A stretch of 44,736 nucleotides of DNA, from the IMG/VR virus record IMGVR_UViG_3300050821_007174, positions 1-44,736 of that record; one strand, 5' to 3'. This DNA comes from a virus. Shown one piece after another: positions 1,593 through 43,754 of this stretch; within the stretch, counting starts at the first letter, position 1; each line of letters opens with the position of its first letter. The notes beneath the pieces were generated by a model. That model searched no databases. It was not told the DNA's origin and saw only the letters and a list, made by a program, of their open reading frames with translations. Made by a program: the position numbers and the translations under genes.

Positions 1593-1948
1593 GATTCGAT
1601 CCACCACGGTACGCCACCCTCGTTGGGGATGAGGTGGTCGAATGTTCGCTCGAGCGATGGATTAAACAGCGCGGAATGGTGTCGGACCCACGTCAACGCA
1701 TCGTCAAGCAGGAAATCGTGGGCGATCGCTTCTGGGTCAGCACGGTGTTCCTCGGCCTCAACCACGGTTTGGGCGACGAAGCGCTTTGGTTTGAAACGAT
1801 GATCTTTGACGTGTACTCGCGAGACGAGCAACACGGGTACCCGGAGAACATTTATTGCGAGCGCTACTCGACGCTGGTAGAAGCCAGGCGTGGTCACCAG
1901 GTTGCCGTCGAGTACGCTCGAAAACTTTTAGCCGACCAACCCAAATGA
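1589..1948 (+). CDS. Phage hypothetical protein, 119 residues
   Basis: I chose the ATG at 1589 because it overlaps the previous stop; a frame open from 1532 has no better start. The central part reads STVFLGLNHGLG...LWFETMIF and later RYSTLVEARRGHQ. That pattern, from memory, recurs in small uncharacterised phage proteins that keep a Phe-Glu-Thr-Met core and a Tyr-Ser-Thr...Gly-His end. No catalytic motif is evident. It overlaps the following nuclease gene by four bases. Confidence 0.75.
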   Translation: MRFDPPRYATLVGDEVVECSLERWIKQRGMVSDPRQRIVKQEIVGDRFWVSTVFLGLNHGLGDEALWFETMIFDVYSRDEQHGYPENIYCERYSTLVEARRGHQVAVEYARKLLADQPK

Positions 1949-3069
1949 CCGACCTGATCGATCCCGAGCGCTTAGATTTGACCAGTGCTTCCGGCGCTCA
2001 CGCTCGCCGGCGTTGCGGCGGTCAATACCAACTAATCCGGCATTTGAGACGGACTGGTCAGCTCAAAACTCGTTCCTCCAAAGACTCCATCTTCGGCAAT
2101 CGCGTCCATTCCGGGTGGGCCGGCGAAAAGCTCGCGCTGACACCTTTCGAGGCTGAGACGCTCGAGAAAATGCAGCGCCTGGAACAAATGCTCTTGACCG
2201 ATTGGGCCGCCGGCCGTGAAGTCGCGCTCTTCGCTCGGGAACAACGCTTATGGCTGCACACTGGCATCACGCCTCTGCATAGCGGCCGCTACGATGTCGC
2301 GTACGTCACTACGGATTTCAGCGCGATGCTGATTATCGATGGCAAAACCTTAATGCATCCCGTGGCTCCCGCGGATACCAACGATCAATTGCGCGAGCTG
2401 GTAGCACTAGCCCATTACAATTATCCGGCGATTAAGACCTTCACGGTCGCCATTATCCAGCCTCACGTTGAGCGACCAACCAGCATGGCAACCTACGACG
2501 AGCTGGAGGCAGAGCTTGCATTGCGTTTGTTGCGTTGGCATTTGAACGACATTGCATCTCTGGATCTCCCGCGGATCTACGGCGAGTGGTGCCGCTACTG
2601 TCCCGCAATGGAATTTTGCCCGGAAGCCAAGGCGGGCATCGAGCCGATCTTGGCCCATCAATTCGAGCGGGAACCGGAATCCGCAAAACTGGTCTTAACG
2701 ATCGGAAAGGAAGGAGCCGACTTTATCCGGCGCCTGGTCGCCGCCAAAGCCCTCTGCGAAAGCTTGCTTTCGGCCTACAAGGCGTTTTTAGAAGAAAACC
2801 CTGACCAGATACCGGGTTTCGTCTTAAAGCCCGGCAAATCCAAACGGGCGATTCGCGATGTCCAATCCGCTTTTGACGTTTTGGATGGCACGGTCAGCCT
2901 CAAGGATTTCTTGGAATGCGCTAGTGTCAGCGTGACCAAATTGCAATCCGCTTTCGGTGCCGCGACCGGGACGAAAGGCAAACTTTTGCGCGAGGCATTT
3001 AATGCTCGACTTGACGACGTTCTGGAGTGGAAAACAGACGCTCCACAACTCGAGGATACCGAGCAATAG
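1945..3069 (+). CDS. PD-(D/E)XK exonuclease, DUF2800/Cas4-like
   Basis: This is a 374-residue nuclease of the RecB/Cas4-like superfamily. Visible features are a substrate-side segment with GNRVHSGWAGEK, the acidic GRYDVAYV strand followed by IIDGKT (the D...D-x-K catalytic pattern), an AIIQPHV strand, and the Cys cluster EWCRYCPAMEFC near residue 215. Such clusters bind iron-sulphur or zinc in DUF2800/Cas4 proteins. The start ATG at 1945 overlaps the previous stop. With RecT at 42639 it would form the exonuclease half of a two-component recombination system, though the pair is split by the acyltransferase cassette. The exact family assignment is from pattern memory. Confidence 0.8.
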   Translation: MTDLIDPERLDLTSASGAHARRRCGGQYQLIRHLRRTGQLKTRSSKDSIFGNRVHSGWAGEKLALTPFEAETLEKMQRLEQMLLTDWAAGREVALFAREQRLWLHTGITPLHSGRYDVAYVTTDFSAMLIIDGKTLMHPVAPADTNDQLRELVALAHYNYPAIKTFTVAIIQPHVERPTSMATYDELEAELALRLLRWHLNDIASLDLPRIYGEWCRYCPAMEFCPEAKAGIEPILAHQFEREPESAKLVLTIGKEGADFIRRLVAAKALCESLLSAYKAFLEENPDQIPGFVLKPGKSKRAIRDVQSAFDVLDGTVSLKDFLECASVSVTKLQSAFGAATGTKGKLLREAFNARLDDVLEWKTDAPQLEDTEQ

Positions 3070-3456: not shown

Positions 3457-3602
3457 GAAAGAGTAACTTTTCGCTTGGCTCGGCTCGCGCCTGCAGTGCA
3501 AAGTTTGAGCTCCCCACAAAGGAGCTTCAAATCTCCACTAACGCGCTGAAAAGACTTTTAAAAACCTTCCCGCTCGAAGTCGTTCCGTTCACTGAGGCTT
3601 AG
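3453..3602 (+). other. Intergenic stretch with an open frame lacking a normal start
   Basis: Between the genes at 3175-3456 and 3653-4003 there are about 196 bases. One frame stays open to TAG at 3602 and ends KRLLKTFPLEVVPFTEA, which looks protein-like. It has no ATG, GTG or TTG start, only ATA at 3453, directly after the stop of the upstream gene. It may be a decayed gene end, a frameshifted extension or chance. Confidence 0.25.
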
Positions 3603-3652
3603 CGTTGCCTATTTGAACTTTGAACGCCGGCTTCGGGCGGGACTCTTTTTTT

Positions 3653-4003
3653 ATGAGTATTTTCAGTCAACCCTCCCTGCCCGATTACGGTCCAGGTAAA
3701 GAGTATTTCCTGGTCGATAGTGACCAATTGCGTCAACTGATCCTCGATTGGTCCCCGGATATCCGACGTGACGCCAACCGGATGGAGGACATGATTCGCG
3801 AATTGGTAAAGACCGAACGCGAAAAAGCTGGACTCGAGCGACCAGAGGTCAAAGCAACGCTCGAGCTCAATCAAAACAAGCGCAGTAATTCGGACTGCGA
3901 TTATATCGGCAAAATGCGTGTCGCCGCAAAGGTCTATAGCGCCAAAGCTTGGATTGCCCCGGGTGCCCGGTTCATCAATGTGACTTTCGATTCCACCCTG
4001 TGA
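3653..4003 (+). CDS. Hypothetical protein, 116 residues
   Basis: I chose the ATG at 3653 (MSIFSQPSLP); a TTG at 3620 would add eleven residues. There is no clear ribosome site for either. The product is mixed alpha/beta, with a DWSPDIRRDANRMEDMIRELV helix region and a C-terminal beta-type segment ending INVTFDSTL. It directly precedes the helicase gene (20-base gap), which suggests a replication-related role, but no family is recognised. Confidence 0.6.
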   Translation: MSIFSQPSLPDYGPGKEYFLVDSDQLRQLILDWSPDIRRDANRMEDMIRELVKTEREKAGLERPEVKATLELNQNKRSNSDCDYIGKMRVAAKVYSAKAWIAPGARFINVTFDSTL

Positions 4004-4023
4004 AGACAAGGAAGATTATCCCA

Positions 4024-5169
4024 ATGTATGATCCGACTTTGCGGACCAATCCGCTGGTAGAGTTACACGAGAAGACCGAAACCTTTGCCTTGTCCGGACG
4101 CAGTCTCCATGACTTTCTGGACATCGTGATCGATCCAGGCACCAACCTGCTCGGCAACCGCTGGCTCACTCGGGAAGGTTCGCTCTTTGTCGTAGCCCCT
4201 AGCGGACACGGTAAGAGCTCGTTCAGTATCCAGTGCGCGATCCATTGGGCGCTTGGACGCGTCGCTTTCGGAATCAAACCCGCCAGACCGTTGCGAATCC
4301 TCCTCTTGGAAAGTGAAGACGATGACGCTGACAACTCCTCCTTTGTCCAGGTCTTGCGCACCATGAACCTCACCTCCGAAGAGCTCGACTTGCTCCACGC
4401 CAATACCAGACTCGAATTCCGGCGCGATTTGGCCGGCAACCGGTTCTTTACCGCAATTGATCAATTCCTCGACCAATACCAAGCCGATATCCTCCTGATC
4501 AACCCCCTGACCGGCTTTTGCACCATCGATTTGAAGGACGAAACCCAAATGAACGAGTTTTTGCGCAACCGCTTGAATGCCGTCATGGCTAAGCATCGCT
4601 GCGCCCCGGTCATCGTCGCTCACATGCCAAAAACCCAAGTCGCTCAACTCCAAGACAAAGAGTGGTACGAATGGATGTACATCCTCTCAGGTTGCGTCAC
4701 CCTAACCAATTGGGCCCGCGCCATCCTGGTCTTTGTCCCCTCCAGCGTCCGCGGAACTTACCGCTTCATCACCGCTAAACGCCCAGCCCAAAGCGGTTGG
4801 CTCGAGCCCGAATACTATTTCCAGCATTCCAAGGAAGTTATCCATCAACCCGGCGGCAATGAACTCGAGGTCATTCAATGGATCCCTGCCTACGAAGCGC
4901 AAATCCTCGAGGCTCGCCCCGAACCTAAAACTCGGAAAAGCAAAAAGACCGATGTCTCCGAAGCCCTCATCCATTCCAAAATGAGCCCTCTCGAAGAGTT
5001 TTCCCGCGAATCCTTCATCGCTTGGGCCAAAGACCAATTCAAACTCGGTTACCACCTCGCCGATACCTACCGCAAATCAATGGTCCACAACCAACTCATC
5101 CAAGAAATCCTCGGCGATCCTAAAGGCGCTGCTACCCCTAAAACTTATCGCAAACTTCCCAAACCTTAA
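4024..5169 (+). CDS. RepA-like AAA ATPase / replicative helicase (AAA_25 type)
   Basis: This 381-residue RecA-fold ATPase resembles RSF1010 RepA and the hexameric helicase-like AAA_25 family. Walker A is APSGHGKSS (K64, S65). The Walker B strand is ADILLINPL, with Asn160 where an Asp is expected. The motif VIVAHMPK (H200) matches the sensor region, and SGCVTLTNWARAILVF matches the arginine-bearing strand of RepA-like proteins. The C-terminal 100 residues are basic and probably contact DNA or a partner. I chose the ATG at 4024. The gene lies immediately left of the TGGACA box cluster, a typical place for an origin-acting helicase. The coding strand becomes strongly C-rich towards its 3' end. 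Confidence 0.8.
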   Translation: MYDPTLRTNPLVELHEKTETFALSGRSLHDFLDIVIDPGTNLLGNRWLTREGSLFVVAPSGHGKSSFSIQCAIHWALGRVAFGIKPARPLRILLLESEDDDADNSSFVQVLRTMNLTSEELDLLHANTRLEFRRDLAGNRFFTAIDQFLDQYQADILLINPLTGFCTIDLKDETQMNEFLRNRLNAVMAKHRCAPVIVAHMPKTQVAQLQDKEWYEWMYILSGCVTLTNWARAILVFVPSSVRGTYRFITAKRPAQSGWLEPEYYFQHSKEVIHQPGGNELEVIQWIPAYEAQILEARPEPKTRKSKKTDVSEALIHSKMSPLEEFSRESFIAWAKDQFKLGYHLADTYRKSMVHNQLIQEILGDPKGAATPKTYRKLPKP

Positions 5170-5176
5170 AATCATC

Positions 5177-5338
5177 TGGACACTGTCCTCCAAAACGATC
5201 GCCACAACGCTGTCCAAATAACCAACACCCCCTTCGGGGGTTATGTTGGATTTGGACACCGTGCGTCGATTTGCGCGACGTTGTCCAGTTTGGACACTGT
5301 CCAACGGTGTCCAATAAAGCTTAACTGGACACTGGACA
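5177..5338. repeat. Cluster of TGGACA/TGTCCA boxes, proposed origin or operator
   Basis: Nine exact copies of TGGACA or its complement lie within 162 bases: 5177-5182, 5211-5216, 5253-5258, 5282-5287, 5291-5296, 5298-5303, 5308-5313, 5326-5331 and 5333-5338, plus a partial at 5184-5188. Two form palindromes, GGACACTGTCC (5178-5188) and the perfect 15-mer TTGGACACTGTCCAA (5290-5304). Chance would give about 0.1 copies. The cluster fills the gap between the helicase gene and the next gene. It could be iterons of a replication origin or multiple operators of a repressor; the adjacent skew switch favours an origin. Confidence 0.75.
5222..5249 (+). other. Stable hairpin inside the box cluster
   Basis: CCAAC and ACCCCC (5222-5232) pair with GGGGGT and GTTGG (5236-5241, 5245-5249) around a TTC loop, with a TAT bulge. 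There is no T run after it, so a classical intrinsic terminator is doubtful. Given its place among the TGGACA boxes, it may be part of the origin or end helicase transcription. Confidence 0.5.
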
Positions 5339-5342
5339 ACGT

Positions 5343-5666
5343 ATGCTCAATCTCGTCATCAATCCCCGCGGTTACTTCATCCTCTCTAAAATCAATGCCA
5401 AAGGCCAACGCCCTATCCGCATCATCTTCCCTCCTCACGCTAAATACCTCGCTCTCGCCGCTTTAGAGCGCACCGTTTTGTACCTTAAGTACGTCAATCG
5501 GAATCCCACCACTAGTGCCTTGATCCAAATGATGACCGGTCATCAAATTCCAGAGCGCAGACCAACACATATGCGCGAGGGAAACACCAGGAAAGTTCCG
5601 CGTGGAACACGGAGAAAAAAGCGAGCGTTTGATCAAGTAATTGACAAGTCAGAGCACCAGTCCTAG
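5343..5666 (+). CDS. Hypothetical basic protein, 107 residues
   Basis: The ATG lies five bases after the last TGGACA box. The N-terminal two thirds look compact (LVINPRGYFILSK, then AALERTVLYLKYV). The C-terminal 35 residues are strongly basic (RKVPRGTRRKKR), which suggests DNA or RNA contact. Codons in the first half are extremely C-rich and G-poor (27 C and 8 G in 5401-5460) and this bias reverses near the 3' end. It could be a regulator or initiator acting at the box cluster, which is inference; no family is recognised. Confidence 0.55.
   Translation: MLNLVINPRGYFILSKINAKGQRPIRIIFPPHAKYLALAALERTVLYLKYVNRNPTTSALIQMMTGHQIPERRPTHMREGNTRKVPRGTRRKKRAFDQVIDKSEHQS
5642..5651 (+). promoter_or_regulatory. 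TGACAAGTCA motif, copy 1
   Basis: One of four exact copies of this near-palindromic 10-mer in the genome (others at 14201, 33792 and 38129). This one overlaps the 3' end of the gene at 5343 and lies about 140 bases before the late block. Confidence 0.3.
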
Positions 5667-5744
5667 GGCGAACGCGCTTGGTCAAAGCGTACATAGGGGG
5701 GAGGGGGTCGATGCCGAGCCGGCCGGCCCGCGGCGCGACCGGTC

Positions 5745-5773
5745 TTGACGTTGCGAAAATTTCCTCCTATGTC
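5745..5773 (+). promoter_or_regulatory. Possible promoter before the late block
   Basis: TTGACG (5745-5750) and TATGTC (5768-5773) are separated by 17 bases in the 121-base gap before the first late gene at 5788. The -35 box is good and the -10 box weak. The preceding 40 bases are very GC-rich (GGCCGGCCCGCGG around 5720). Confidence 0.35.
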
Positions 5774-5787
5774 CGATCATAGCGATC

Positions 5788-6696
5788 ATGCATTTTCACG
5801 ACAACAAAGGGATGATGGACAAGTGGCATGACTATTGGGAAGCGTGTGGGTGTGAGCCGCAAGCTAGGGGAGGGGTGTTACCTAGGCCGTTAGACAGTCG
5901 GCATGTGAGTGCGTTGTTGTATATGCAATGGGCGAGGGGTATGGGGAGAGAGGTGATTAGTCCGTTAGACGATTGGGGAAAAGAGTTAGTAGAGATGAGT
6001 GAGGGAAAAGCGAAGGGAGGGAGTGTATACGACAGATTATTGGAAGGGTTAGAAGGGGTAGAAGTGAGGTGGGTGAGTATCAAGTTATGGACGCCATTAG
6101 AGAGGGCGGCGGTGGCGAAATGGGTAAGGATAGAGGAGTATTTGCAGGAGAGGGGAAGGTTACGGAGGGAGAAGGCGAGGTTAGCGAAGAAGCGGAAGGA
6201 GATCTATCGGGAACGGATGGAGCGGATTAGGGGAGGGAATAAGAGGCGAGGTGGGCGAGTATTAGCGAGTGTGGAGGAGTTAGAGGGGAGGGCGATGGAG
6301 TGTGAGAGGGCGGTGGTGCGGGGGGAAGGGCGGATGGCGAGTATGCGGGCGGCGAAGTACTGGAATCAAGCGGAGATAAGGAGGAAAGAGATAGAGATGG
6401 CGAGGAAGAAGGGTGGAGAAATAGAAGGGGTAAAAGGGATAAAGGAGGATGGAGGACTTGAACTGGAGCGGGTGGAGAGTGTTAGGCCGGAGGTAGAGTT
6501 AGAGGTGATACGGGTGGGGCCGAACCCGCGGATTTTGGTATGTCGATACAAGATATTAGCGGAAGAATTATTGGTGAAGTTAAAGGTTCATAGTACCCTG
6601 AAGTTTGTTAAGGGGATGCGGATTAGGATGCGAGAGGAGGAAGGAGAGGAATGGGAATACACTGGCAACCTCCCCCGGCACAAGGGGCGTTGGTAG
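5788..6696 (+). CDS. Hypothetical protein, 302 residues, upstream of large terminase
   Basis: This is the first gene of the late block, overlapping the large terminase by 46 bases. The central part (about residues 110-215) is a long, highly charged Arg/Lys/Glu-rich helix, probably coiled coil; the C-terminus (RPEVELEVIRVGPNPRIL) looks beta-rich. By position it could be a small-terminase or packaging protein, but no HTH or family signature was recognised and a better small-terminase candidate lies at 37416. The coding strand is extraordinarily purine-rich: 5941-6000 has 24 G and 3 C, with Leu as TTA, Arg as AGG and Gly as GGG. ATG 5788 is used here; MM at 5812-5817 is an alternative. Confidence 0.65.
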   Translation: MHFHDNKGMMDKWHDYWEACGCEPQARGGVLPRPLDSRHVSALLYMQWARGMGREVISPLDDWGKELVEMSEGKAKGGSVYDRLLEGLEGVEVRWVSIKLWTPLERAAVAKWVRIEEYLQERGRLRREKARLAKKRKEIYRERMERIRGGNKRRGGRVLASVEELEGRAMECERAVVRGEGRMASMRAAKYWNQAEIRRKEIEMARKKGGEIEGVKGIKEDGGLELERVESVRPEVELEVIRVGPNPRILVCRYKILAEELLVKLKVHSTLKFVKGMRIRMREEEGEEWEYTGNLPRHKGRW

Positions 6697-8327
6697 AGGA
6701 GGAGGTAGAAGAGTTAAGTGGGCACAAGGTATTGCCGCATCCGGTTTATCCGTTACCGACTCGGGAATATGCCAAGAGGTTTCCGGAAGAGACGAGGAGA
6801 TATTTAGAGAAGCGGAACGAGCGGATAGCGAATGAGATAGAGGATCCCTGGCGGTACGGGTATCGGCCGGCGAGTTGGGCGCGAGCGGACAAATGTTTAG
6901 AGGCAGGGTTTACGGAGATTTTGTTATTGGGCGGGAACCGGGCCAGTAAGAGCGAGTACGGGGGATATTGTGCGATTAGGAAGATGATGAGTGGGCCTAA
7001 GAAACGGGTTTGGTGTTTACAGAGTACGGAGCCCAATAGTGTGGAGATGCAACAGCCGATCGTCTGGAAATATCTGCCAATAGAATATCGGGATTTGCCG
7101 AAGAGCCGGGTGGCGAATGTTAGTTACACGCAGAAGAACGGGTTTAGCGAGAACAAGTTTATTTTTCCGAACGGGAGCGAATGTATATTTCGGAATTACG
7201 CGCAGGATGTGGCGGTGATTGAGGGTGGGGATTGCGATTTGATTTGGTGCGACGAATTAGTGCCCTTGAGTTGGATTGAGACGCTGAGGTACCGGTTACT
7301 AACCAGGGGCGGGACCTTGTTACTGACCTTTACTCCGATTGAAGGGTATAGTCCGGCGATCAAGGAATTTTTGGATGGGGCCAAGACGGTGGAGGAGAAA
7401 CTGGCGGATCCGGAATTGTTAAAAGGGCAATTGATGCCCTTAGTCCAGCATTGTGTGCGAAGTAGTGCTTGTGTGGTTTATTTTTGGAGTCAAGACAATC
7501 CGTTTTCGAGTTATCCGAACATGGTCAAGGCCTTGAGAGGTGCGCCGAAGTCAGAGATTAAGACCAGGGCATATGGGGTGCCGACCCGAGCGATTGCCAG
7601 TCGATTTCCGAGGTTCAGAGAGAAGGTCCACTGCTTTGATGCAGTGGATTTGCCTTTAGTGGGGACCCGATATCATTTTTGTGATCCGGCATCGAGCCGG
7701 AACTGGTTTTTCATTTGGGTATTGGTGGATCCGACGGGAACCCATTGGGTTTACCGGGAATGGCCGGCGGAAGGTATCTATATACCGGGGGTAGGCGATC
7801 CTGGGGCCTGGGCGGAACCTGACGGGCGGCGTGCGGACGGGAAAGCCGGGACAGGGCAGACCAGTTTTGGCTGGGGGATCAGTCGGTATAAAGCGGAGAT
7901 TGAACGGATTGAAGGGGCGGGGAAAAACCCGGATGGAAGCGATCGGCCGGCCGAAACGATCTTGGAACGTTGGATGGACAGCCGTTTTGGGAATAGTCCG
8001 AGTAACGCTGCGGATGCAGCGACCACGTTATTGGAGGAAGTGGCGCAATTGGGGATGGCTTATGCGCCAGCACCAGCCGATCCGATTGAGGAAGGGGTGA
8101 GTCTGATTAACTCGATGCTTGACTTTGATGAACAGACGGGGAGACAACCACAGTTACGGATTAGCCGCGAGTGCAAAGCGTTGATATTCAGTTTAAAAGT
8201 GTGGACCGGGAAAGACGAACGGAAAGGGGCCTCGAAAGACCCGATCGATTGCTTGAGATGGATGGCAGTGGCGGGATTAACGGATGTGGGGGAAACCCTG
8301 ATGTTGGTCGAACCGATGGCTTATTAG
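6651..8327 (+). CDS. terL: Terminase large subunit
   Basis: This 558-residue packaging motor cuts and pumps phage DNA through the portal. The ATPase domain shows an adenine-side region before LLLGGNRASKSEYG (Walker A-like, Lys in the SK pair), Walker B CDLIWCDE, and the coupling motif LLLTFTPIEGYS. The nuclease domain starts at HFCDPASSRNWFF, with the first catalytic Asp, and a late Asp lies in SKDPIDCLRW. A strong purine-rich ribosome site (GAGGAGGAAGG) precedes ATG 6651 inside the upstream gene. It is followed after four bases by the portal gene. The strong G-over-C bias of the coding strand continues through this gene, fading towards the 3' end. Confidence 0.93.
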   Translation: MGIHWQPPPAQGALVEEEVEELSGHKVLPHPVYPLPTREYAKRFPEETRRYLEKRNERIANEIEDPWRYGYRPASWARADKCLEAGFTEILLLGGNRASKSEYGGYCAIRKMMSGPKKRVWCLQSTEPNSVEMQQPIVWKYLPIEYRDLPKSRVANVSYTQKNGFSENKFIFPNGSECIFRNYAQDVAVIEGGDCDLIWCDELVPLSWIETLRYRLLTRGGTLLLTFTPIEGYSPAIKEFLDGAKTVEEKLADPELLKGQLMPLVQHCVRSSACVVYFWSQDNPFSSYPNMVKALRGAPKSEIKTRAYGVPTRAIASRFPRFREKVHCFDAVDLPLVGTRYHFCDPASSRNWFFIWVLVDPTGTHWVYREWPAEGIYIPGVGDPGAWAEPDGRRADGKAGTGQTSFGWGISRYKAEIERIEGAGKNPDGSDRPAETILERWMDSRFGNSPSNAADAATTLLEEVAQLGMAYAPAPADPIEEGVSLINSMLDFDEQTGRQPQLRISRECKALIFSLKVWTGKDERKGASKDPIDCLRWMAVAGLTDVGETLMLVEPMAY

Positions 8328-8331
8328 TGAG

Positions 8332-10443
8332 ATGACCTTCGAGGAAGTTAGATCAGCTTTCGATACATCAGTAACTGACGCCAGCCAGTACCAGAGTTGG
8401 ATTGCTGAACTCGATGATGCTCGGTACTGCAAATGGGACGGGCAAACGGTCGACGGGCGCAAACACGAGAAGTATTTAAACAAGGAAGTGTTTCCGTGGG
8501 ATGGGGCGAGCGATATCCGGACATTTTTCATTGACGACCTGATCTGCGATGACGTCGATATCATGAGGGTGGCCGATAAAAATTGCCACATGCAAACGGT
8601 CCCGGTGAACTCGACTTATCAGAGCCTGGCAACCAGTCAGACCGCGGTGATTGATTACGTCAACCGGGCTTGGATGGCAGAAGAGCTGGAGCGTGAAAAG
8701 GAGTTGCTCGCTCAGTGGCGACAACATTACGGGAGCTCGGTAATGGCGATTGATTGGTGGATGGATTTTGATTCCGAGCAAGTGACGGTGACGATGCAGC
8801 AGTTAATGCAGTTAGGGCAACAGGATCCGCAATTCGGCGCCATGATGCAGTATCTGCAGGACAATTTGCAGCAGTTGAGTCAGGCTGATTTGGCGGCTGC
8901 GGCCCAGATGTTTTCGCAGTACTTCCCGCAAGTCAAAGATATCCAGGGTGCGCTTACGAGTTTACTGCAGACTGGCCAATTCCAGTACGACAACCCTTAC
9001 GTAAAAGAGAGCCGACCCTGTGTCACCGCTCTGCGTTCCTTTCAAGACGTCTTCTTTATTAGAGGGACCTTTGATCTGCAGATTTTGCCTTGGATAGTGA
9101 GGCGAGATGTCTTGCCGAAACCGTCTGTCGAAGACCGAGCTAAGTTTGAACAGTGGGACCCGGCCTTTACTAAAGAAGTCTTAGCCCACGCCGGCGAACA
9201 GATCGTGGCAATGAGCGGTTGGGGGACTAGCGACAATGCCAGGTTTGCCGGGGACCGACTTTACGTGGACGAGATGCGCGATCTCTGTGAGGTCTTTTAC
9301 GCTTTTTATAAGGGAGTCGACAGGAGTAACAATCGCCGGATCATGGTGACCATCTTTCATCCCTCGACTAAGACGGTTGGGCGGACATTACCGAACCCTT
9401 ATTTGCACGGGAAATATCCCTTCGTCTTGTGCATGCGGGAAAAACGCTCACGAAGCGCGATTGAGAGCCGCGGTGTGGGTGATGTCGAGATGACCCATCA
9501 GTCGGAGATCAAAAACCAGCGTGATAGCCGCAATGACCGGACTAGTTTAGGTACTTTGCCTCCGCTCCAGGTGCCGTTGGGCCGCGGAAAACAGCAATAT
9601 CGGCTCGGGCCACGCGCTCAACTGCAGGTCATGCGGGCCGGCGAGCTCGCCTGGCTGCAGCCTCCACCGCTTGACCCGGAAACTTTCGAGACGGAGAACA
9701 CGATTATCCGAAGTGCCTACAATTATTGGGGTAAATCGGTGGAAGGCGTCGATCCGAACAAAGTTTTAAGGAAACAACAGCGTCTAATTGACTCGTGGTT
9801 GGGCGAATTGCGGGCGATTTACATGCAAATTTACCAACTTTGCGAGCAATACATGGATCCCAACGATTGGGCGCAGATTTCAGGGGACCCGCAGAGTGTT
9901 CCGCAAGCCGATCGACGATCGATTCAGCATAATTTGCAATTGGTACTCGAATACGACGCCAAAGATCTCAATACCGAGTATTTGGGAAACAAGATGAACC
10001 TGATTCAGCAGATGTTAGTGGCAACTGACGCTGCGGGCGTGATTGATCGGGCGGGACTGACCCAATATGCGGCTCGAGCCTTGGATCCGGCATTGGCTGG
10101 GCAGATAATTCGGCCGAGTGGACAGGTGACCCAGCAAGAAATCACCGAAGAACAGGCCGCATGCGCGCAAATCGTTAGTGGCGTGGAACCACCGGTTTAT
10201 CAGTCGGGGCAAAACGCTCAATTGCGTTTGCAAGTGATGCAATCGACCGCGCAAGCGCAAGATTACGTGAATTTCTTGCGTCAAAACCCTTTAGCGATGG
10301 AACGCTTCGATAGACGCGCGAAAAACATGCAATTTCAGATCCAACAACAGCAAAACGCTGTTACTGGCAAGATCGGGGTGCCGCCGGGCCCGACTGAACA
10401 ACTCGGCGCTGGAGCTGGACCGGCCCCGGCACCAGGAGCTTAA
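8332..10443 (+). CDS. Portal protein
   Basis: This 703-residue protein forms the dodecameric portal at the capsid vertex for DNA entry and exit. The N-terminal KWDGQTVDGRKH followed by FPWDGASDIRTFF is a pattern I associate with large podovirus/SU10-type portal proteins. The middle holds clip and stem regions (ADRLY, YPFVLCMREK, SRGVGDVEMTHQSEI) with the conserved tract around residues 375-400. A Gln-rich insertion (residues 155-205) and a Gln/Ala/Pro-rich tail follow. The position right after the large terminase supports the call. Confidence 0.85.
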   Translation: MTFEEVRSAFDTSVTDASQYQSWIAELDDARYCKWDGQTVDGRKHEKYLNKEVFPWDGASDIRTFFIDDLICDDVDIMRVADKNCHMQTVPVNSTYQSLATSQTAVIDYVNRAWMAEELEREKELLAQWRQHYGSSVMAIDWWMDFDSEQVTVTMQQLMQLGQQDPQFGAMMQYLQDNLQQLSQADLAAAAQMFSQYFPQVKDIQGALTSLLQTGQFQYDNPYVKESRPCVTALRSFQDVFFIRGTFDLQILPWIVRRDVLPKPSVEDRAKFEQWDPAFTKEVLAHAGEQIVAMSGWGTSDNARFAGDRLYVDEMRDLCEVFYAFYKGVDRSNNRRIMVTIFHPSTKTVGRTLPNPYLHGKYPFVLCMREKRSRSAIESRGVGDVEMTHQSEIKNQRDSRNDRTSLGTLPPLQVPLGRGKQQYRLGPRAQLQVMRAGELAWLQPPPLDPETFETENTIIRSAYNYWGKSVEGVDPNKVLRKQQRLIDSWLGELRAIYMQIYQLCEQYMDPNDWAQISGDPQSVPQADRRSIQHNLQLVLEYDAKDLNTEYLGNKMNLIQQMLVATDAAGVIDRAGLTQYAARALDPALAGQIIRPSGQVTQQEITEEQAACAQIVSGVEPPVYQSGQNAQLRLQVMQSTAQAQDYVNFLRQNPLAMERFDRRAKNMQFQIQQQQNAVTGKIGVPPGPTEQLGAGAGPAPAPGA

Positions 10444-42404: not shown

Positions 42405-42642
42405 CCCTCGCGCCGATCAGAAATCGACCATTGCTGTCGGACACCCAGATTTCACCATTTTCCTCCCACACGGCCGGATGTTCATGATCGAGATGAAAGC
42501 GCCCGGTGGGAGATTTTCCCCTGAACAAATCGGCCGAATTGAAGCATTGCGCGCCCTTGGGCACCTGGTCGAGATCGCGTGGAGCGCAGACGAAGCGTGG
42601 AAAATGACTTTGAGAGAGTATGAGAAAGCAACCCTGACATGA
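42232..42642 (+). CDS. VRR-NUC domain nuclease, 136 residues
   Basis: A stand-alone VRR-NUC domain of the PD-(D/E)XK type: EIQQQRAFSRLM as the first helix, GHPDFTIFLPHGRMFMIEMKA, shown in part, with D...E-x-K, and RIEALRALGHLVEIAWS at the end. Phage VRR-NUC proteins are thought to resolve junctions or nick DNA. ATG 42232 is needed to include the first helix, so overlap with the HTH gene is real. ATGA coupling to RecT. Confidence 0.8.
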   Translation: MIEPNLVKLMSPTDQAYYRELGLIPDPAKQAKTLKRNEIQQQRAFSRLMTQRRIPFINPRADQKSTIAVGHPDFTIFLPHGRMFMIEMKAPGGRFSPEQIGRIEALRALGHLVEIAWSADEAWKMTLREYEKATLT

Positions 42643-43754
42643 CCGATAAACCACTAGCCAAACGTAAACCGAACGAACTCCGCGACTTGATCGAGGGAGC
42701 TGATTTTCGAGCCCAACTCTTGAAGGCTCTTCCCAAAGCGATGAGTCCAGAGCGATTCGTCCGCATCACCGTGACCTCGATGATGCGCAATCCTAAACTC
42801 CTGAATTGCACTCGGGAAACGTTCTTTCGATGTCTGCTCGATTTGAGTGCGATGGGGCTCGAGCCCGATGCGCGCCAGGCGCACTTGATCCCGCGCAAAA
42901 ACAAGCACACCAACGCCATCGATTGCACTTTAGTAGTTGATTACAAAGGACTTAAGGAATTGTTGTACCGTAACGGCGACATCATCGATGAGCACTCCGA
43001 TGTCGTGGGTGATATGGACTTTTTCGAGTACGAATTCGGGAGTGCAAAGCACCTGACGCACAAGCCCAACATCCATGCTCGCGGCAAGATTTTCTGCGCC
43101 TACAGCTACATCACCTTGCCCAAAGGCGGTACCACCTTCGACGTTATGTCGACCGAAGAGATTGAAGCGGTGCGCAAACGCTCGGCATCGCCCGACAGCG
43201 GGCCTTGGGTGACCGACTGGGCGGAAATGGCCAAAAAGACCGTCTTTAGACGGCTGTCCAAAAGCCTTCCTCTTAGCCCGAAAACGCGAGATGCGATGGA
43301 CGTAGATCAGACCTATGACCTCGCCGAGCCGTCGCCGATCGCAACCGCGCGCACAGCAGTCGTTGGCGGCCGCCGAGAACTCCCGCCGGAACCCGAAGAG
43401 CCCGAAATCGGCGAATCTAGCGACGAACCAGGCCCGCAAGAACCCGTTGGCGTTCCTATAAGCCCGCCTGAGCCCGTTTTAGGCGCGGGAGAGTCACCCA
43501 AGCCTCCCGGCCCATTAGCGCGCGTCAGAAAGGCTTTAAAGGACGCGGGGTTTTTGCCGACCGAGTTTGTGAAGCTGTTACAAGCGGTGCGCCTGATTAG
43601 AGCCGAGATCAAAGAAATCGGCCAAGTCCCGGCTCATGCCTTGGAACAAGCTCTCGCGGATTGGGACAACGTCCTTAAACGGCTGGAGCTCGAACGCGCC
43701 AACGCCAGCAACCCTAATCCGCAACCGGTCGAGCCCGACGATTTCCCAGCATGA
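42639..43754 (+). CDS. recT: RecT-family single-strand annealing protein
   Basis: This 371-residue protein matches RecT. LPKAMSPERFVRI near residue 30, the CTRETFFRCLLDLSAMGLEP block, AHLIPRKNK, LVVDYKGLKELL and the KKTVFRRLSKSLPLS region are the family core (residues 25-225). The C-terminal third is Pro/Glu-rich and variable, with a helical end. It anneals single strands made by the exonuclease, probably the protein at 1945. ATGA overlaps on both sides. It is longer than the usual 270 residues because of the tail. Confidence 0.9.
   Translation: MTDKPLAKRKPNELRDLIEGADFRAQLLKALPKAMSPERFVRITVTSMMRNPKLLNCTRETFFRCLLDLSAMGLEPDARQAHLIPRKNKHTNAIDCTLVVDYKGLKELLYRNGDIIDEHSDVVGDMDFFEYEFGSAKHLTHKPNIHARGKIFCAYSYITLPKGGTTFDVMSTEEIEAVRKRSASPDSGPWVTDWAEMAKKTVFRRLSKSLPLSPKTRDAMDVDQTYDLAEPSPIATARTAVVGGRRELPPEPEEPEIGESSDEPGPQEPVGVPISPPEPVLGAGESPKPPGPLARVRKALKDAGFLPTEFVKLLQAVRLIRAEIKEIGQVPAHALEQALADWDNVLKRLELERANASNPNPQPVEPDDFPA

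What the first reader, a model, noticed from the sequence alone, without database searches (positions are those of the whole stretch)
4600..7900. Extreme GC-skew inversion across the box cluster
Seen: with all genes on the + strand, 5041-5100 has 23 C and 7 G, 5401-5460 has 27 C and 8 G, while 5941-6000 has 3 C and 24 G and 6361-6420 has 3 C and 26 G. The switch is near 5560 and fades over several kb on both sides. Established: negative-to-positive skew marks origins of bidirectional replication. The size of the swing is far beyond what codon choice in adjacent same-strand genes should give.
Basis: partly seen in the sequence, partly recalled or inferred. Interest (0 to 1): 0.78.

Follow-up and report, generated by a model that had tools for sequence, protein, structure and literature searches.

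The report
Strand-bias tent centred on phage cos
In this phage and about a dozen relatives, G and C trade places between the two DNA strands exactly at the predicted site where the genome is cut for packaging, and the bias fades exponentially over about 2,000 bases on each side, a sharp local pattern I did not find at the ends of other phages checked.

Summary
GC skew runs from about -0.4 to +0.7 across ~5.57 kb, and the cumulative-skew minimum is at 5568. The reading as an ordinary bidirectional origin is only partly supported. The skew does not span replichores: it vanishes within ~4 kb to the right and ~2 kb to the left. In 13 relatives (window included) the switch always lies 5-70 bp past a conserved element, G6AG5 - ~28 nt - CGACCGGTC - AAAATTTT (window 5696-5762). 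This element matches the cos site of Variovorax phage VarioGold, whose 10-nt 3' end CGATCGGTTC was mapped with PhageTerm. When the cos/rep module lies ~10 kb from the terminase gene and inverted (G001, G007), the tent goes with it. Skew decays exponentially (+0.60, 2.1 kb right; -0.46, 1.8 kb left). It is almost purely a C<->G swap at constant GC content, with opposite sign in genes read in the same direction. Cos alone does not cause it: lambda, HK97, phiC31, D3, VarioGold and L101-type phages lack it. Best explanation: a strand-specific process starts at cos-cut ends and runs outward ~2 kb (end resection or strand displacement exposing single strands), biasing substitution. An origin beside cos, or selection, remain possible.

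The parts
5696..5707 (+). G tract GGGGGGAGGGGG, left part of the conserved cos-like element
   Evidence: sequence; alignment of 11 loci with invariant G columns; VarioGold has a G-run at a similar distance left of its cut
5736..5745 (+). predicted cosN, CGACCGGTCT (homologue of the 10-nt 3' overhang CGATCGGTTC of VarioGold)
   Evidence: CGACCGGT invariant in the 11-locus alignment; VarioGold right end ends in CGATCGGTTC and its left end starts CCCAAATTTTT; circular contig G005 begins inside this 10-mer
5756..5762 (+). A/T run AAAATTT right of the predicted cut
   Evidence: alignment; same kind of run in VarioGold and L067
5533..5542 (.). second palindromic site TGACCGGTCA, ~200 bp left of cos, inside the small ORF; ~375 bp left of cos in G009/G010/G015; not found in G003/G004
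   Evidence: in G009/G010/G015 the left skew arm begins near it
3500..5535 (.). left arm: top strand C-rich, skew deepening toward cos
5746..9500 (.). right arm: top strand G-rich, C-depleted, exponential decay (fit for the window: amplitude 0.81, 1.8 kb)
5177..5341 (.). box cluster TGGACAC/GTGTCCA with a CCCCCTTCGGGGG hairpin; candidate iterons or operator
   Evidence: several relatives have boxes of other sequence at a similar place
3949..5169 (+). AAA_25 (RepA-like) P-loop ATPase, probable replicative helicase, C-rich coding strand
   Evidence: Pfam PF13481 E 5e-16; RecA-like ATPases at this place in most tent genomes where the left flank is long enough
1855..3069 (+). PD-(D/E)XK exonuclease (DUF2800)
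   Evidence: Pfam PF10926 and PF12705, PHROG 69
5343..5666 (+). small ORF spanning the left ACCGGTC site
   Evidence: no family match
5788..6696 (+). ORF of unknown function at the peak of G-richness (third-position GC skew +0.78)
6651..8327 (+). terminase large subunit-like gene used to find relatives
   Evidence: Terminase_6N weak match below cut-off; 31 loci found with it
42639..43754 (+). RecT single-strand annealing protein
   Evidence: PF03837 E 6e-35, PHROG 148

Best explanation
The switch marks the cos site of a circularising tailed phage, so the two arms are the two ends of the packaged linear genome. A strand-specific process begins at the cos-cut ends and runs outward with an exponentially distributed reach of about 2 kb. 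The most likely process is exposure of one strand as single-stranded DNA, either by 5'-to-3' resection for RecT-dependent recombination or by strand-displacement synthesis launched there. Over evolutionary time it biases base substitution so that the strand running 5'-to-3' away from cos gains G and loses C. Shown by sequence: the tent, its position at the element, its moving with the module, its exponential shape and the C<->G swap. Strongly inferred by homology: that the element is cos. Inferred only: single-strand exposure and error-prone synthesis as the cause.
For: (1) The element matches the PhageTerm-mapped cos of VarioGold in three parts at similar spacing (PMC9658991). The same element lies directly upstream of terS/terL-like genes in L067. 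(2) With the element masked, the switch falls 5-70 bp past CGACCGG in 13 of 13 genomes. (3) The cos/rep module sits ~10 kb from terL and inverted in G001 and G007, and the tent is there while terL is unskewed. TerL fourfold skew falls with distance from cos (rho -0.69, p 0.012, not corrected for phylogeny; the distances of the two far genomes were entered as approximations). (4) The decay is exponential: amplitude +0.60 and length 2.1 kb (R2 0.97) on the right, -0.46 and 1.8 kb on the left. That is the shape expected of a processive enzyme starting at an end. (5) The phage encodes an exonuclease, RecT and a RepA-type helicase. (6) At fourfold sites C falls and G rises with A/T nearly flat. G:C to C:G transversions are a known output of the ImuB/ImuC mutasome in Caulobacter (PMC3901139). 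(7) The circular contig G005 breaks inside the predicted 10-nt overhang. (8) The less conserved ORF is skewed at all three codon positions, terL mostly at the third.
Against: Other cos phages (lambda, HK97, phiC31, D3, VarioGold) and L101-type phages with the same element show no tent, so cos alone is not sufficient. Divergence in the arms is not clearly raised, and C/G differences are not a larger share of differences between close relatives than elsewhere, so there is no sign of hypermutation. C loss has little sequence context, so no specific deaminase signature. A rep module lies within about 2 kb of cos in the tent genomes, so cos and origin effects cannot be separated with these data. 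No read data or host were available.
Confidence: 0.5

Rival explanations
1. The replication origin lies at or beside cos (RepA-like helicase, box cluster, A/T run), and the skew is an ordinary leading/lagging or strand-displacement asymmetry that fades because forks soon switch mode or most initiations abort.
For: Polarity is that of an origin, with G-rich strands leading away. A RepA-like ATPase lies left of cos in most tent genomes where the flank is long enough, often with boxes. Cumulative minimum 5568.
Against: The skew is not replichore-wide and has no opposite extremum. The switch is at cos, 400-650 bp from the boxes. RepA relatives without the cos element (L302-L304) show only 0.32-0.35 contrast in 600-bp windows, near background. 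No T excess on the outward strand.
Confidence: 0.28
2. Selection, not mutation: strands that become single-stranded at genome ends, or that the packaging motor or a translocase reads directionally, are favoured to be C-poor/G-rich outward, for example to avoid secondary structure during RecT annealing.
For: Divergence is not clearly raised in the arms, the C/G share of differences is not raised, and C loss is broad across sequence contexts. A G-poor 3'-ended strand cannot fold well (inference).
Against: It needs selection on thousands of sites including synonymous ones, with a smooth exponential decline. No motif enrichment was demonstrated.
Confidence: 0.18
3. Codon usage, transcription or R-loop effect of the genes that happen to lie there.
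For: Arms consist mostly of coding sequence; right-arm mRNA is purine-rich.
Against: Genes on both arms are read in the same direction but have opposite skew. The same terL gene is skewed or not depending on its distance from cos. Different genes right of cos in G001/G007 have the same sign.
Confidence: 0.03

Closest known systems
cos site of Variovorax phage VarioGold (OP296522; PMC9658991), 10-nt 3' cohesive ends
   Same: G-run, CGAYCGGTY 10-mer and AAATTTTT in the same order and similar spacing
   Different: VarioGold ends show no GC-skew tent; spacing from the 10-mer to the A/T run is shorter; the window's cos has an ORF between it and terL and no recognised terS
GC skew at bacterial replication origins
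   Same: sharp negative-to-positive switch, outward strands G-rich
   Different: bacterial skew spans whole replichores and often carries T excess on the leading strand (general knowledge); here it is exponential over ~2 kb, nearly C<->G only, and centred on cos
IncQ/RSF1010-type RepA helicase replicons (strand displacement)
   Same: RepA-like AAA_25 helicase gene next to repeated boxes and a hairpin (resemblance from general knowledge, not tested by a family-specific model)
   Different: no RepC or RepB' sought or found; mode of replication untested

Membership tests
cos site of the VarioGold type (3' overhang) | CGAYCGGTY 10-mer flanked by a G-run on the left and AAATTT on the right | tested here: met
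cos site of the VarioGold type (3' overhang) | lies next to terminase genes or an HNH endonuclease | tested here: inconclusive
   near the terL-like gene in the window and several relatives; an HNH-like ORF left of cos in G004 (read by eye); ~10 kb from terL in G001/G007
cos site of the VarioGold type (3' overhang) | virion DNA ends at the 10-mer | not testable with these tools
   no reads; only indirect support from the G005 contig break
bidirectional replication origin | single cumulative-skew minimum | tested here: met
   5568
bidirectional replication origin | skew sustained over both replichores with an opposite extremum | tested here: not met
bidirectional replication origin | read-depth peak or mapped initiation | not testable with these tools
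   no reads

The most novel reading that the evidence does not exclude
Packaging or recombination at cos leaves a strand-specific evolutionary footprint: in one phage lineage, cos-cut ends are repeatedly made single-stranded over ~2 kb and copied with a C-to-G bias. A DNA-end-processing tract-length distribution would then be written in base composition.
Probability: 0.4. Interest if true: 0.8.

Novelty: new variant of a known kind. Interest (0 to 1): 0.62.

Why it matters
If end processing at cos shapes base composition, the exponential tract (about 2 kb) is a readable record of how far nucleases or displacement synthesis run from phage ends in uncultured hosts. It would also be a caution against calling origins from GC skew in phages, and the tent could serve as a marker for cos in metagenomic phages of this lineage. 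The almost pure C<->G swap would be an unusual strand-specific mutational or selective signature for bacteria.

Tried and rejected
The cos pattern scan of genome contigs gave chance hits in GC-rich genomes with no tent, so no host was found. blastn of the element against named phages gave only chance hits. HK97's left end does not resemble the element. A mitochondrial CSB II-like R-loop primer was considered because of G6AG5, but dropped as the primary reading once VarioGold's cos matched. Chi-type protection was rejected on polarity: G-rich octamers would be on the wrong strand (reasoning, not a computation). C<->G hypermutation is not supported by pair spectra, and a context-specific deaminase is not supported. 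Literature searches found no report of a skew gradient at cos or genome ends. Haloarchaeal virus BJ1 used cumulative skew to choose its map start but its authors report that cos sites are unlikely there. No terL relative was found in plasmids.

Full report
OBSERVATION. The window is a complete circular phage record with a 97-bp terminal repeat. All four base counts in the finding are exact, and the cumulative GC-skew minimum of the circle is at 5568. The swing lies far outside both the rest of the genome and block shuffles. Skew decays on both sides and is near zero over the remaining ~35 kb, so it is not a replichore pattern. GC content is flat; G and C trade places.

RELATIVES. A terL-like query found 31 viral loci. 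Each relative that contains the element has one such tent, at differing distances from terL. At each centre I read the same element: G6AG5 or a close variant, ~28 nt of GC-rich sequence, CGACCGGTC or a close variant, then a short A/T run. In G001 and G007 it is inverted relative to terL and ~10 kb away, and the tent is there. With the element masked, the single best switch point is 5-70 bp right of the start of CGACCGG in all 13 genomes. Records G006 and G008 lack a tent; G006 is a 28.7-kb fragment starting inside terL, and no element was found in either.

IDENTITY OF THE ELEMENT. A pattern scan showed a similar element directly upstream of terS/terL-like genes in L067, and a search with that locus hit position 1 of Variovorax phage VarioGold. 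That phage's termini were mapped with PhageTerm: 10-nt 3' cohesive ends, CGATCGGTTC (PMC9658991). Its right end reads G-run...AAAC CGATCGGTTC and its left end CCCAAATTTTTACG. The element is therefore most probably cos, with the window's overhang at 5736-5745. One circular relative contig (G005) breaks inside the 10-mer. I have not shown that virion DNA ends there.

SHAPE AND SPECTRUM. Averaged over 13 genomes, skew falls exponentially: +0.60 and 2.1 kb on the right, -0.46 and 1.8 kb on the left (profile). At fourfold sites of terL, C drops from ~0.4 to 0.1-0.2 and G rises to 0.4-0.7, with A and T almost unchanged. Divergence in the arms is not clearly different from elsewhere, and C/G differences are not over-represented between close relatives; fourfold sites are far diverged, and unalignable parts drop out, so this is weak evidence against hypermutation. 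C depletion is broad across contexts. Genes on both arms run in the same direction but have opposite skew, which excludes transcription and codon usage as the driver.

CONTROLS. The ends of lambda, phiC31, HK97, D3 and VarioGold lack a tent (for HK97 and D3 only part of the ends was read), and 93 unrelated viral loci have maximum 1-kb contrasts averaging 0.16 (95th percentile 0.28), against 0.39-0.93 for family records that hold the site away from a contig end. L101-type phages carry the element without a tent. RepA relatives without the element show 0.32-0.35 in 600-bp windows. The tent therefore goes with the cos element within this lineage, but cos alone is not sufficient.

SURROUNDINGS. 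Left of cos lie a PD-(D/E)XK exonuclease, an AAA_25/RepA-like ATPase, a box cluster whose sequence differs between genomes, and a small ORF with a second ACCGGTC. RecT is encoded elsewhere. An origin near cos is therefore plausible, and the two effects cannot be separated here.

MECHANISM. An exponential reach from a fixed end suggests a processive enzyme. Either 5' resection, leaving 3' strands that lose G, or displacement synthesis, exposing 5' strands that lose C, fits the polarity. G:C to C:G transversions are a documented product of ImuB/ImuC-dependent synthesis in Caulobacter (PMC3901139), but the host is unknown. Selection for unstructured, C-poor outward strands would give the same picture.

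VERDICT. A real, conserved, cos-centred strand asymmetry.

Noticed in passing
L101 (element at 4747-4793, minus strand), L148, L141, L066 and related loci: A second phage group carries the same cos-like element between a TerS-like HTH gene and replication genes, without any skew tent; several of these contigs end within ~200 bp of the element.
   Followed up: partly
window:5533-5542 and relatives: A second palindromic ACCGGTC lies ~200 bp (about 375 bp in G009/G010/G015) left of cos; the stretch between the two sites is nearly skew-neutral. Function unknown.
   Followed up: partly
G009, G010, G015 versus window 5788: An ORF starting M(H/N)FH... lies right of cos in the window but between the two ACCGGTC sites in these relatives, so cos has shifted relative to the genes.
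   Followed up: no
G001 and G007: The exonuclease/RepA/cos module is inverted relative to terL and ~10 kb away from it.
   Followed up: partly
window:15373-16452: SU10-type major capsid protein (PF17236, E 1e-37).
   Followed up: no
window:12505-14004; window:581-1525; window:26494-27297: DNA methyltransferase, O-acetyltransferase-like protein and PAPS-reductase-domain protein encoded in the phage.
   Followed up: no
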